NCBI GenBank assembly: GCA_000993535.1
Contig: LBWG01000006.1
Location: 1 to 44,817 of the forward strand
Source: Candidatus Uhrbacteria bacterium GW2011_GWF2_39_13
Lineage (GTDB): Bacteria > Patescibacteriota > Patescibacteriia > UBA9934 > GWF2-40-263
Reading direction: 5' to 3'
Length of the DNA: 44,817 nucleotides
Shown here: one piece after another, positions 29,505-41,441 of the stretch
Layout: every line of letters begins with the position of its first letter
Position numbering within the stretch: position 1 is the stretch's first letter
Position numbers and translations under genes: made by a program
Notes under the pieces: model-generated
Told to the model about the DNA's origin: nothing
Databases searched by the model: none
The model's input: only the letters and a program-made list of their open reading frames with translations

Positions 29505-30161
29505 ATGTCTGTTTTAATACGACAAGAAATCCTTTCCTTCATTGAAGCGAAAACGCTTGTGTTCACTCCTGCGTTAGATCAATTTCAAGTTCAACCTCAT
29601 GCTGTTGATTTGAGGTTAGGCTATAAATTCCTAATTCCTCGCAATTGGACCGTGGATGAAAAAGGTCGTAGAGCCATCAAAGTAGCTATCGATGATATTG
29701 AAACACATCAGGAACAGTTTGATGAAGTTCAACTCCAACCAGGACAATACTTCGAACTTCTCCCAAATGAATTTGTGATTGGAACGAGTTTAGAAAAAAT
29801 TGAACTCAATGCTATGGATCTGATGGGAGTCCTCTTTCCACGCACATCGACAAACCGACGCGGTATTGATCTGTCTTTGTCAGGCATTATTGATACGGGT
29901 TATAAGGGACATCTTATTTTCCCCATGCAAAACGAAGCCGGAAACCAGGTCATCCGTATTTACCCAGGCGAACGAGTCTGCCAGATTTTATTCCAAAAAC
30001 TCAATCAGCCGTTAACCCCAATGGAAGCAAACCTCCATGGACTCACCGCCGCCAAGTACACAGAATCAGGTTCTCAAACATTTCAATTAGATAAAGAAAG
30101 CGAACGACAATTACTCATCCAAGGGAAACTCGAAGATCTCAAAAAGAACTTCCGTCTTTAG
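29505..30161 (+). CDS. dCTP deaminase/dUTPase-family protein
   Basis: The 218-residue protein belongs to the trimeric dUTPase/dCTP deaminase superfamily. PHAVDLRLGYKFLIP, PNEFVIGTS and FPRTSTNRRGI line up with the family. The GIIDTGYKGHL block (127-137) fits motif 3 with Asp130. At the place where deaminases have their catalytic glutamate (family form ...G-x-I-x-L-E) this protein has Pro140 (HLIFPMQNE). That favours pyrophosphatase (dUTP to dUMP) over deamination, but the shift is by eye. It has no close operon partner. Confidence 0.8.
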   Translation: MSVLIRQEILSFIEAKTLVFTPALDQFQVQPHAVDLRLGYKFLIPRNWTVDEKGRRAIKVAIDDIETHQEQFDEVQLQPGQYFELLPNEFVIGTSLEKIELNAMDLMGVLFPRTSTNRRGIDLSLSGIIDTGYKGHLIFPMQNEAGNQVIRIYPGERVCQILFQKLNQPLTPMEANLHGLTAAKYTESGSQTFQLDKESERQLLIQGKLEDLKKNFRL

Positions 30162-34065: not shown

Positions 34066-34779
34066 TTATAGTTGTCGAAGCACATTGCGTAATTGAGCCA
34101 CTACTTGATCAGTCAAAGAAAGTGTGTAAATAAGTTCGTTATTCTTCAAAAAACACTCCACTCCATCAGAAGTCTGCACACAAAGGACATCACCCCCTTT
34201 TTGTTTTATTTCAAGCTGAAGTTCGCTCAACATTACACGTACTTGATTTAATAATTCAGAATCAAACCCCTCCAAAGAAACCGTTTTAATGCTTGGAGAT
34301 AGCGTTTCTTGGTACACTTTGTCACGAGCAAATCGCTCATGAGCATCATCGGTAACATACAGATCTCGAATACCCGCCTCAAGAAGCGCTGTCCAACACG
34401 GTTCACAGGCCCACCAATGTCCGTATAAATACGCGTCAGATCCTGTTGGATCTAATCCCAATCTTGAGGCTTCTGAAAGAACCATTCGTTCTGCATGACC
34501 TGGTGCGTCATGAAGATGGCACAGGTCATATCCTGTTCCACTTGGAACATCCAACACCACCCGAGGACACACATGAATCTGCCCTGGACCTTTATTAAAT
34601 CCATTGCCCGCACGAGCAATGACCTTCCCTTCTTTTACAAGCACACTCCCCACAGGATACAAAGAATCTCCTGCACACTCTTGTCGTGCACGTGCTGCCT
34701 CGATCATAAATGGATGATCAGCAAAAACATACTTGAGATGATGACCCGGCGGCATATAAGGGTAGTCGATATTCAACAT
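34066..34779 (-). CDS. dCMP deaminase-like zinc protein
   Basis: This is a cytidine/deoxycytidylate deaminase-fold protein. HAE (95-97) and CEPC (125-128) are the catalytic zinc ligands. A second set, CPR (71-73) and C87 in GYDLCHLHD, matches the C-R...G....C...HAE layout of dCMP deaminases with a structural zinc. That argues for dCMP to dUMP deamination over base or nucleoside deamination. With 237 residues it has about 70 extra C-terminal residues of unknown role. The start is the ATG at 34779; a perfect TATAAT lies 25 nt before it. Confidence 0.8.
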   Translation of the reverse strand: MLNIDYPYMPPGHHLKYVFADHPFMIEAARARQECAGDSLYPVGSVLVKEGKVIARAGNGFNKGPGQIHVCPRVVLDVPSGTGYDLCHLHDAPGHAERMVLSEASRLGLDPTGSDAYLYGHWWACEPCWTALLEAGIRDLYVTDDAHERFARDKVYQETLSPSIKTVSLEGFDSELLNQVRVMLSELQLEIKQKGGDVLCVQTSDGVECFLKNNELIYTLSLTDQVVAQLRNVLRQL

Positions 34780-34785
34780 ACAAAA

Positions 34786-34809
34786 TGTTATACTTGAGAA
34801 AATATTATA
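34786..34809. promoter_or_regulatory. Overlapping divergent promoters
   Basis: Plus strand: TGTTATACT (34786-34794), an extended -10 for the gene at 34817. Minus strand: a perfect TATAAT (34804-34809) for the deaminase gene. They face each other within 24 bp, so the two directions should compete for RNA polymerase. No good -35 boxes are seen. Confidence 0.45.
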
Positions 34810-34816
34810 CACGTTT

Positions 34817-39275: not shown

Positions 39276-39776
39276 TCAAACCTTATAATGTAACAATACG
39301 CTCTGTTCATTAAGTTTCCTCACTTCAACCAAATTCAAATTCATTCGATCAAACCCTGATGCAAAGGAAACGCCCGTCCCAAATAACACAGGTTCGATTG
39401 TTAAATAAAGATCTGTGACAAGACCTGCTTGAAGAAACTGGCTATAGATAGACGAACCTCCTGCAATGACGAATGACTCAATTCCCTCTTGGGTCAGTTT
39501 ATTTATCAACTCTACAGGAGAAAGGGTACTAAATTCTACCCCTTCCATTTGAGTCTTCATCCCCTCATGACGCGTCATCACAATCAATCGTCGACCTTTT
39601 AAAGGCTTTCCTATTGTTTCAAACGTCTTGCGTCCCATAATGACAACTCCTGCCTCCTTTGTCTTCTCAACAAAAAAACGAGTGTCTTCCTTACTTGTCC
39701 AATCCAAAGATCGCTGATCTGAAGACTCAGCAATAAATCCATTTGCCGATATAGCAGCAATAAGCCAGATCTCCAT
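39276..39776 (-). CDS. Dihydrofolate reductase family protein
   Basis: The 166-residue protein fits DHFR. AAISANGFIA starts it, LDWTSKEDTRFF corresponds to the substrate region with an acidic residue, VIMGRKTFETIGKPLKGRRLIVMTR is the classic NADPH and folate block, and FVIAGGSSIYSQFLQAGLVTDLYLT is the second NADPH segment. It reduces dihydrofolate to tetrahydrofolate. It starts 3 nt after the thymidylate-synthase-family gene, so they share an operon and a folate cycle. Confidence 0.88.
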   Translation of the reverse strand: MEIWLIAAISANGFIAESSDQRSLDWTSKEDTRFFVEKTKEAGVVIMGRKTFETIGKPLKGRRLIVMTRHEGMKTQMEGVEFSTLSPVELINKLTQEGIESFVIAGGSSIYSQFLQAGLVTDLYLTIEPVLFGTGVSFASGFDRMNLNLVEVRKLNEQSVLLHYKV

Positions 39777-39779
39777 ACA

Positions 39780-40619
39780 TCAATAAACGTTGACCGTAAT
39801 CTTTAAGTCTTTAATCGGTCCCAAAGGCTGGTACTGATTTTTGAGGTGAAAAAACAGTTCATCAACTAATTGAGTATCCCCTGTTAATGCCCGCTCATAA
39901 CTGGTGTCTGGAACGCGGCATTGGATTGGTGGATGTTCGTGTGTCCGGTTCATAATCTCACGAGCGGCATCAAAATGATTATCATAAATATGAGCATTAC
40001 TGATGGAATGAGTATAAATACCGGGTTCCACCCCAAGTTTCTGCGATAAAATACATTGCAAAAGAGCAAATCCTGCCACATCATGCGGACACCCAAGAAT
40101 CATATCATTGGAACGAATGATGTTATGCAAATGCAATCTTCCACCGGCAATATTTACGGTAAATGTATACGGACAGGGTAAATTCTTCTTTGTATCCACT
40201 GCCAATCCATCATCAGACGGGTCCCAAGCCACTACGACTGCATGTCTTGAATGCGGATTTTCAGACAAATGTTCAATGAGGGCATGTATCTGATCTCGCC
40301 CAAAATGGTGTCGCCAACGATACCCATAAGCCGCCTTGATCGTTCCATCTTCTTCCAAAAAATCATCCCAAATTTTGGTATAAGCCCGTAACCAATCCGG
40401 TTTATTCTCCCCCATCAAAAACCAAATCTGCTCGGCAATAAATAACTTCAAAGGAATCTTGCGTAACGTCAATAAAGGAAACGATTCTCCAACATCAACA
40501 CGCAATGTGAGCCCAGGAACCATTCGTGTAACGCGACCAGACCAAGGATTAGGAATATCTATCCCCTCCTCCATAATCTGTCGAAGCGCTTGCTGATATT
40601 GATGGTCAAATGACATCAT
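39780..40619 (-). CDS. Thymidylate synthase family enzyme with dCMP-type specificity residue
   Basis: The fold is thymidylate synthase: Glu63 in AEQIWFLMG, GYRWR (99-103), nucleophile Cys149 in NLPCPYTF, IRSNDMILG (168-176) and AHIYDNH (209-215). In the segment that corresponds to LGLPFNIA of E. coli ThyA this protein reads LGCPHDVA. Asp180 thus replaces the Asn (N177 in E. coli) that selects dUMP. In dCMP hydroxymethylases that position is Asp and the enzyme acts on dCMP. His next to the nucleophile and the Gln four residues later (E. coli H147, Q151) are also changed (Pro, Thr). It may therefore methylate or hydroxymethylate dCMP. The DHFR partner favours methylation, because that makes dihydrofolate. 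Confidence 0.85.
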   Translation of the reverse strand: MMSFDHQYQQALRQIMEEGIDIPNPWSGRVTRMVPGLTLRVDVGESFPLLTLRKIPLKLFIAEQIWFLMGENKPDWLRAYTKIWDDFLEEDGTIKAAYGYRWRHHFGRDQIHALIEHLSENPHSRHAVVVAWDPSDDGLAVDTKKNLPCPYTFTVNIAGGRLHLHNIIRSNDMILGCPHDVAGFALLQCILSQKLGVEPGIYTHSISNAHIYDNHFDAAREIMNRTHEHPPIQCRVPDTSYERALTGDTQLVDELFFHLKNQYQPLGPIKDLKITVNVY

Positions 40620-40724: not shown

Positions 40725-41441
40725 ATGAAAAGAAACGACCGATTCATCATGATCGATGGAATTTTAGGAAGCGGAAAATCGACCATCCTGAAAACCATCC
40801 ACGAGTGGGCTCAAACCTGTGAACACAAAACATTCAGGCTTCAAGACTGGACACAGGCACAACCTCCTCGTTTTGAAGATATTTCTGAATTTGATGTTTA
40901 TTTTACCTACGAACCAACAAGAACATGGATAGGAGGAGCTATTCGTTATGAACTCTCTCGAGAAGACCAGCCTTATGCAGGAGAGGAATTAGCCCATGCG
41001 TTTGCTCTAGACCGTCAAATCATGTATAGACGATTGATTCTCCCAGCACTCAACGCAGGCAAAACAATCATTCAAGATCGTGGAGTATCAACTTCACTGG
41101 TTTATCAACCTGTCATGCCTGGTGGACTGCCTTTGGAAGCAGTCATGAACCTTCCAGGAAATCGCCTTGCTTTGAAACATGCGCCTCATGCTCTCATTCT
41201 CACACGCATTAGTGCAGAAGCAGCGCGTGAACGTATCCTCAAGCGTGATGATGAATCGAAAGGAGTTTTCGCAGACCTCGCATTTCTTAAAAAACAAGAA
41301 GAGCGATTTTCCTCTGACTGGTTCAAAGATTTATTTACCTCTCATGGAACACAGGTATTGGAACTAGATACCTCAGGATCGTTGGAAGAAACACAAAAAC
41401 AGGCAACGCAACTAATCAATCATCTTTTGACCACGTGTTAA
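40725..41441 (+). CDS. Thymidylate kinase-like deoxynucleotide kinase
   Basis: A P-loop kinase of the dTMP kinase family, 238 residues, a little longer than usual. DGILGSGKST is the P-loop, TYEPTRTWIGGAIR corresponds to the TREPGGT...IR block, and QDRGVSTSLVYQ is the DR(Y/G)..S..(A/V)YQ motif. The reaction is dTMP plus ATP to dTDP plus ADP, but the altered TREPGG loop (YEPTRTW) means the exact nucleotide is not certain. It is divergent from the thymidylate-synthase-family gene. Confidence 0.88.
   Translation: MKRNDRFIMIDGILGSGKSTILKTIHEWAQTCEHKTFRLQDWTQAQPPRFEDISEFDVYFTYEPTRTWIGGAIRYELSREDQPYAGEELAHAFALDRQIMYRRLILPALNAGKTIIQDRGVSTSLVYQPVMPGGLPLEAVMNLPGNRLALKHAPHALILTRISAEAARERILKRDDESKGVFADLAFLKKQEERFSSDWFKDLFTSHGTQVLELDTSGSLEETQKQATQLINHLLTTC

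What the first reader, a model, noticed from the sequence alone, without database searches (positions are those of the whole stretch)
39780..40619. Thymidylate-synthase homologue with Asp at the dUMP-selecting position
Asp180 replaces the conserved Asn (E. coli N177). In dCMP hydroxymethylases this position is Asp, and Asn-to-Asp mutants of thymidylate synthase are known to act on dCMP. Other active-site neighbours are also changed (Pro150, Thr154). The enzyme may make 5-methyl- or 5-hydroxymethyl-dCMP in a cellular genome.
Basis: partly seen in the sequence, partly recalled or inferred. Interest (0 to 1): 0.65.

Follow-up and report, generated by a model that had tools for sequence, protein, structure and literature searches.

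The report
Cytosine-first thymidylate synthesis in Patescibacteria
This gene in a tiny uncultured bacterium looks like an enzyme that methylates the cytosine nucleotide dCMP rather than the usual uracil nucleotide, and together with a special neighbouring deaminase it probably makes the DNA letter T in an order so far reported only for a bacterial virus.

Summary
The ORF at 39780-40619(-) is a thymidylate-synthase (TS) fold protein with Asp180 at E. coli N177 and Pro150 at H147. It is the only TS-family gene found in this 69%-complete Uhrbacteria genome, and no thyX was found. All 59 aligned Patescibacteria rows of its clade keep P147 and D177. The sister clade is TS of Bosavirus/Pamexvirus phages, the group of phage Xp12, which methylates dCMP and deaminates 5-methyl-dCTP to dTTP (literature). 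New here: the D177 TS travels with DHFR, dTMP kinase, a pyrophosphatase-like dCTP-deaminase relative without its catalytic Glu, and a distinct 'GHWW' deaminase. Among 95 related genomes the deaminase occurs in 39/43 with D177, 0/20 with N177 TS and 0/25 with ThyX. A second TS lineage that acquired D177 independently also sits beside it. Hydroxymethylase signature residues are absent. Best explanation: dCMP to 5-methyl-dCMP to dTMP, a cellular counterpart of the Xp12 route. No activity was measured. Three lineages lack the deaminase and are unexplained.

The parts
39780..40619 (-). TS-family protein, predicted folate-dependent dCMP methylase (C149 nucleophile, P150, N171, D180)
   Evidence: PF00303 192.6 bits; D180 = Ec N177; model Z 33 to ThyA
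40080..40082 (-). codon GAT of Asp180, the pyrimidine-selecting position (Ec N177, T4 gp42 D179)
40170..40175 (-). codons of Cys149 (nucleophile, Ec C146) and Pro150 (Ec H147)
39276..39776 (-). dihydrofolate reductase-like protein directly downstream of the TS gene; would recycle the dihydrofolate made by a methylating TS
   Evidence: PF00186 78.5 bits; next to the TS in most D177 loci
40725..41441 (+). thymidylate kinase-like protein, divergent from the TS gene
   Evidence: PF02223 74 bits, TIGR00041 85.7 bits over cut-off 83.25; conserved in clusters
34066..34812 (-). CDA-fold deaminase of the 'GHWW[AC]CxxCW' subfamily (likely start at 34779), predicted 5-methyl-dC nucleotide deaminase
   Evidence: PF00383 40.7 bits; zinc ligands H95, C125, C128 and E97 invariant; model pLDDT 92.7, dCMP deaminases among the top folds, Z about 11
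29505..30161 (+). dCTP-deaminase/dUTPase-fold protein whose catalytic Glu of dCTP deaminase is Pro; predicted dCTP (or dUTP) pyrophosphatase supplying dCMP
   Evidence: PF22769 88.5 bits; 'HLIFPMQN' against 'HITLELSN' of 2QXX; E to P in all Patescibacteria rows

Best explanation
The protein is a folate-dependent dCMP methylase of the TS family. Asp180 binds and protonates cytosine N3/N4, Cys149 adds to C6, methylene-THF donates the carbon, and hydride transfer gives 5-methyl-dCMP plus dihydrofolate, which the neighbouring DHFR recycles. A dedicated zinc deaminase (34066-34812) then turns the 5-methyl-dC nucleotide into a thymidine nucleotide, most simply 5-methyl-dCMP to dTMP, which the neighbouring kinase phosphorylates. 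The dCTP-deaminase-like protein without its catalytic Glu (29505-30161) probably makes dCMP from dCTP. So these Patescibacteria would make dTMP by methylating first and deaminating second, the order reported for phage Xp12. Shown here: sequence, residues, fold, tree, gene linkage, co-occurrence. Inferred: all activities, substrates and the order of steps.
For: (1) D177 with P147 in all 59 clade rows, N177 with H147 in 30 canonical rows; these are the top two positions separating cytosine-modifying TS homologues (PMC8670742), and Asn-to-Asp alone makes TS a dCMP methylase (Liu and Santi 1992, Hardy and Nalivaika 1992, as cited there). (2) The sister clade, 100/100, is D177/P147 TS of Bosavirus/Pamexvirus-type phages in TS-deaminase operons, with DHFR in several; Xp12 belongs to genus Bosavirus and makes 5-methyl-dCMP from dCMP and dTTP from 5-methyl-dCTP. 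(3) Deaminase in 39/43 D177 genomes, 0/20 N177, 0/25 ThyX. In the 4 exceptions the contig breaks at or near the TS or within the cluster. In a phylum-wide sample all 7 other genomes with a strong deaminase match carry D177/P147-type TS (G133 reads C-V at 146-147). (4) Genus g4 acquired D177 independently on a canonical TS backbone and has the same deaminase beside it. (5) Genomes with N177 TS or ThyX carry a different, FPCxxC-type deaminase, often near it. (6) The six genomes of the window's genus show no ThyX, no thymidine kinase and no separate dUTPase; five of them are 87-100% complete.
Against: No activity data exist. Kerfeldbacteria (L039), Woesebacteria (L045) and Daviesbacteria (L067, L080) have the D177 TS but no GHWW deaminase was found in their genomes. 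Many D177 clusters outside the window's genus also hold a real dUTPase, which makes dUMP. Fisher's test ignores shared ancestry. The window genome is only 69% complete. A preference for 5-methyl-dCMP over dCMP cannot be read from the deaminase sequence, and the Xp12 enzyme acts on the triphosphate.
Confidence: 0.72

Rival explanations
1. Ordinary order of steps: the deaminase makes dUMP from dCMP and the TS, despite Asp at 177, still methylates dUMP to dTMP, perhaps with relaxed specificity.
For: The gene set TS-DHFR-dCMP deaminase-dTMP kinase is the textbook one, and it is how phage AXL1 was annotated (PMC9206674). Many D177 genomes carry dUTPase. The deaminase fold is that of dCMP deaminases.
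Against: The determinant of dUMP preference is replaced in every clade member together with H147, Q165 and L143. A separate TS lineage acquired D177 beside the same deaminase. N177 and ThyX genomes use another deaminase family.
Confidence: 0.16
2. dCMP hydroxymethylase or methylase whose product goes into DNA as a modified base, as in T4 or Xp12; the deaminase only balances pools.
For: D177 is shared with T4 gp42 and MilA. The sister phage clade includes relatives of a phage with 5-methylcytosine DNA.
Against: Hydroxymethylation needs Asp (or Glu) three residues before the Cys; here it is Asn in 59 of 59 rows, and D145N abolishes 5hm-dCMP in T4. The genomes would then have no source of dTMP: no other TS or ThyX, and 28 of 43 D177 genomes show no thymidine kinase.
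Confidence: 0.08
3. A nonfunctional or repurposed TS paralogue.
For: Arg21 is Trp in the window and its closest relatives and R127 is His or Gln, weakening two phosphate contacts.
Against: Catalytic C146, E58, W80, Y94, R126, R166, D169, H207 and Y209 are conserved throughout the clade. It is the only TS in most of these genomes.
Confidence: 0.03

Closest known systems
Phage Xp12 dCMP methyltransferase and 5-methyl-dCTP deaminase ('a new thymidylate biosynthesis', Kuo et al. 1982; Wang and Ehrlich 1982) and Bosavirus/Pamexvirus homologues
   Same: TS-family enzyme with D177 and P147 (in the relatives read), operon with deaminase and in several DHFR, folate cofactor; dCMP methylation then deamination in Xp12
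   Different: There it serves a virus that replaces all C by 5mC, deamination is reported at the triphosphate level, and the relatives read here have FPCxxC-type deaminases. Here it is chromosomal, apparently the sole dTMP source, with a different deaminase subfamily. The Xp12 sequence itself could not be read.
Thymidylate synthase ThyA (EC 2.1.1.45)
   Same: Fold, nucleophile, folate residues, C-terminal tail
   Different: N177, H147, Q165 and L143 are replaced
T4 dCMP hydroxymethylase gp42
   Same: Asp at the selecting position; Asn at 168
   Different: No Asp145; TS-like tail present; DHFR-linked
MilA/BcmA CMP hydroxymethylases
   Same: Asp at the selecting position
   Different: Ribonucleotide enzymes of antibiotic pathways with Lys133 and Ala176; the Arg and Ser of deoxy-specific enzymes are kept here (R126 and S167; mapping inferred)
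dCMP deaminase (ComEB/DCTD/T4 cd)
   Same: CDA fold, zinc ligands, catalytic Glu
   Different: WW[AC]CxxCW replaces FPCxxC; the aromatic of the G[YW]N[GA] allosteric motif is Gly; many members carry a Nuc_deoxyrib_tr-like C-terminal domain

Membership tests
TS superfamily (PF00303) | TS fold and Pfam gathering score | tested here: met
   192.6 bits against 24.3; Z 33 to ThyA
TS superfamily (PF00303) | Catalytic Cys, Glu58, Tyr94, Arg166, Asp169, His207, Tyr209 | tested here: met
Thymidylate synthase sensu stricto (dUMP) | Asn at position 177 | tested here: not met
   Asp180
Thymidylate synthase sensu stricto (dUMP) | His at 147 and Gln at 165 | tested here: not met
   P150, I168
Thymidylate synthase sensu stricto (dUMP) | Activity on dUMP | not testable with these tools
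   needs assay
dCMP hydroxymethylase (T4 gp42 type) | Asp at 179/177 | tested here: met
dCMP hydroxymethylase (T4 gp42 type) | Asp/Glu three residues before the Cys (T4 D145) | tested here: not met
   Asn in 59/59 rows
dCMP hydroxymethylase (T4 gp42 type) | Ser/Thr two residues before the catalytic Tyr (T4 S94) | tested here: inconclusive
   Ala in the window, A/T/S mixed in the clade
dCMP hydroxymethylase (T4 gp42 type) | Missing C-terminal tail | tested here: not met
   model aligns to Ec residue 264
Folate-dependent dCMP methylase (Xp12 type) | TS family with cytosine-selecting Asp | tested here: met
Folate-dependent dCMP methylase (Xp12 type) | Product 5-methyl-dCMP | not testable with these tools
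   needs assay
Canonical dCMP deaminase (for 34066-34812) | NCBIfam ComEB equivalog cut-off | tested here: not met
   17.7 bits against 219.45
Canonical dCMP deaminase (for 34066-34812) | Zinc ligands and catalytic Glu of the CDA superfamily | tested here: met
dCTP deaminase (for 29505-30161) | Catalytic Glu (E in HITLELSN of 2QXX) | tested here: not met
   Pro

The most novel reading that the evidence does not exclude
Several Patescibacteria lineages make dTMP solely by methylating dCMP and then deaminating 5-methyl-dCMP, so that dUMP is not an intermediate: a cellular de novo thymidylate pathway distinct from the dUMP route of ThyA and ThyX, related by descent to phage Xp12, with a purpose-built deaminase subfamily that has been replaced in a few lineages by other proteins.
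Probability: 0.65. Interest if true: 0.85.

Novelty: new variant of a known kind. Interest (0 to 1): 0.76.

Why it matters
Textbook de novo thymidylate synthesis in cells always goes through dUMP. If these bacteria go through 5-methyl-dCMP instead, that is a further cellular route to T, shared with a phage system known since 1982. It would change the annotation of 'thymidylate synthase' and 'dCMP deaminase' in many CPR genomes and in Bosavirus/Pamexvirus phages, and it raises how such cells keep 5-methyl-dC nucleotides out of DNA. Two purified proteins can test it.

Tried and rejected
Hydroxymethylase reading: rejected on Asn at T4 D145, the C-terminal tail and the DHFR link. Phage-borne or prophage origin of the window gene: the surroundings are chromosomal (gyrB, rplA, rplK, nusG, eno, gatB). 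A complete dUMP route through dCTP deaminase: its homologue lacks the catalytic Glu, but so does the one in N177 relatives, so this does not discriminate. Long branches (T4 gp42, the CNNNN viral group) were removed from the tree because the viral group fell inside the clade on a 3.6-change branch. Attempts that failed: laying the whole genome, reading the Xp12 record MT664984, and the papers PMC50205 and PMC256042, so the 1982 and 1992 results are cited through later papers. No paper on a methylate-first pathway in Patescibacteria turned up in the searched library, which lacks most subscription journals. A solved structure related to the deaminase was not found by single-sequence search; the profile and fold searches gave dCMP deaminases.

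Full report
OBSERVATION. The ORF at 39780-40619 on the minus strand encodes 279 aa and matches Pfam thymidylate synthase over residues 6-235 at 192.6 bits. Aligned with E. coli ThyA and T4 gp42, Asp180 falls on N177 (T4 D179), Cys149 on C146 and Pro150 on H147, with no gap in this motif. The AlphaFold model from 54 homologues has mean pLDDT 92.0 and superposes on ThyA structures at Z 33, rmsd 1.7 A over 256 residues, down to the last E. coli residue.

WHERE IT IS. The window is a chromosomal contig of a Patescibacteria genome (1.16 Mb, 53 contigs, 68.6% complete) close to Candidatus Uhrbacteria: a GTDB relative carries the gene at 91% identity. Neighbouring genes include gyrB, L1, L11, NusG, enolase and GatB. 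No other PF00303 gene and no ThyX was found in the genome.

A CONSERVED CLADE. Some fifty further loci from MAGs titled Uhr-, Nomura-, Magasanik-, Jackson-, Harrison-, Kaiser-, Kerfeld-, Woese-, Davies- and Gracilibacteria carry relatives at 50-91% identity. In 59 aligned rows of this clade D177 and P147 are invariant, L143 is always Asn, W83 always Phe, Q165 always I/V/M and C168 nearly always Asn. The catalytic set C146, W80, Y94, R126, R166, D169, H207, Y209 is invariant, and E58 is kept in every row that covers it. Position 177 is the known uracil/cytosine selector, and positions 177 and 147 were the top two that separate cytosine-modifying TS homologues from others in a 433-sequence study (PMC8670742).

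METHYL OR HYDROXYMETHYL. The T4 enzyme needs Asp145, three residues before the Cys, to activate water; the paper says even D145N makes no 5hm-dCMP, and that T4 gp42 lacks the C-terminal tail with which TS seals its site (PMC6400193). Here that position is Asn and a TS-length tail is present. Hydroxymethylation leaves THF, whereas methylation makes DHF and needs DHFR; a DHFR-like gene lies directly downstream in the window and beside the TS in most loci. This favours 5-methyl-dCMP.

THE CLUSTER. Across D177 genomes the recurrent neighbours are dTMP kinase, dUTPase, DHFR, a dCTP-deaminase-like protein and a deaminase. In the window they are spread over 29.5-41.4 kb, without the dUTPase. The deaminase has PF00383 at 40.7 bits but falls far below the canonical ComEB model. 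Its family has invariant zinc ligands, the catalytic Glu and a WW[AC]CxxCW signature. Its model (pLDDT 92.7) is closest to dCMP and cytidine deaminases (Z about 11). The dCTP-deaminase-like protein has Pro in place of the catalytic Glu in every Patescibacteria row, so it is predicted to be a pyrophosphatase. That holds in N177 relatives too and does not discriminate.

CO-OCCURRENCE. Among 95 related genomes, the deaminase (E below 1e-20) is present in 39 of 43 with a D177 TS, 0 of 20 with N177 TS and 0 of 25 with ThyX (Fisher p = 8e-21, which ignores ancestry). At genus level, 22 genera with a D177 TS have it and 2 do not; 29 genera with only N177 TS or ThyX lack it. In G029 and G037 the TS lies at a contig end; in G021 the contig ends 1.1 kb beyond it; in G001 a deaminase fragment sits at the contig edge. 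In a phylum-wide sample all seven other genomes with a strong deaminase match have a D177 TS of this clade, while the N177 TS genomes read there carry FPCxxC deaminases. Genus g4 has a TS nested among canonical N177 enzymes that has itself become D177 with Y147, and the same deaminase lies next to it: two independent origins of D177 beside the same deaminase.

PHAGE PRECEDENT. Among the best phage matches are Bosavirus, Pamexvirus and Steinhofvirus TS. They read VPCP..RSSD..GLPYD (D177, P147) and lie in TS-deaminase operons, with DHFR in several. They form the sister clade of the Patescibacteria enzymes, 100/100 for the two together. Xp12 belongs to genus Bosavirus (PMC11946847). It methylates dCMP with a folate cofactor and has 100% 5-methylcytosine DNA. 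Its deaminase turns 5-methyl-dCTP into dTTP independently of the host, according to PMC12088426, which cites Wang and Ehrlich 1982 and Kuo et al. 1982, 'A new thymidylate biosynthesis'. The same paper notes that DCTD is active on 5-methyl-dCMP. The Xp12 sequence itself was not available.

BEST READING. The window's enzyme most likely makes 5-methyl-dCMP, which the dedicated deaminase converts to dTMP (or, at the triphosphate, dTTP). The window's genus shows no ThyX, thymidine kinase or separate dUTPase in six genomes, five of them 87-100% complete, so this pair would be the only visible route to dTMP. Shown: residues, fold, tree, linkage, co-occurrence. Inferred: every substrate, the order of steps and the phosphate level.

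WHAT DOES NOT FIT. Kerfeld-, Woese- and Daviesbacteria (L039, L045, L067, L080) have the D177 TS but no such deaminase was found. In Kerfeldbacteria an amidohydrolase-family protein fused to a Nuc_deoxyrib_tr domain sits in the cluster; several long deaminases carry a weak match to the same extra domain, which suggests a replacement. In the others a very divergent TS-fold protein without the catalytic Cys but with Asp at 177 follows the dCTP-deaminase-like gene, and its role is unknown. Many D177 genomes keep a dUTPase, so dUMP is made, and what happens to it is open.

NOVELTY. The enzyme is a dCMP-type TS and the pathway logic is known from phage Xp12. The variant claimed is a chromosomal, apparently sole, methylate-first thymidylate route in cells, with its own deaminase subfamily. 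No paper stating this was found in the searched library, which is incomplete.

Noticed in passing
L080:9550-10620(+), L045:9975-11066(+), L067:9464-10534(+): A very divergent TS-fold protein in the thymidylate cluster of Davies-/Woesebacteria lacks the catalytic Cys (P-V-Y) but keeps phosphate-binding arginines and Asp at position 177; function unknown.
   Followed up: partly
L039:9557-11311(+): Kerfeldbacteria: amidohydrolase-family deaminase-like protein fused to a Nuc_deoxyrib_tr/DNPH1-like domain, between DHFR and the dCTP-deaminase-like gene, where the usual deaminase is missing.
   Followed up: partly
L032:5711-6625(+), L061:13528-14442(+), L152:1507-2406(+): Several GHWW deaminases carry a C-terminal domain with a weak nucleoside 2-deoxyribosyltransferase / nucleotide N-hydrolase match; the window's shorter copy does not.
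   Followed up: partly
window 29505-30161(+): dCTP-deaminase homologue with Pro for the catalytic Glu, conserved in all Patescibacteria rows seen, including genomes with N177 TS.
   Followed up: yes
L333-L336 (Bosavirus, Steinhofvirus, Mallos, Pamexvirus phages): Phage TS annotated as ordinary thymidylate synthase have D177/P147 and sit in TS-deaminase operons; the published AXL1 annotation assumes dCMP to dUMP to dTMP.
   Followed up: yes
L310-L315: Viral contigs with deaminases similar to the GHWW family (GHWWACKSCC, GHTYCCEYCI and others) but no TS in the stretch held.
   Followed up: no
G043 C10, G048 C30, G050 C40, G078 C18: Some relatives without ThyX have only a weak PF00303 match (57-70 bits) inside a 460-530 aa frame.
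   Followed up: no
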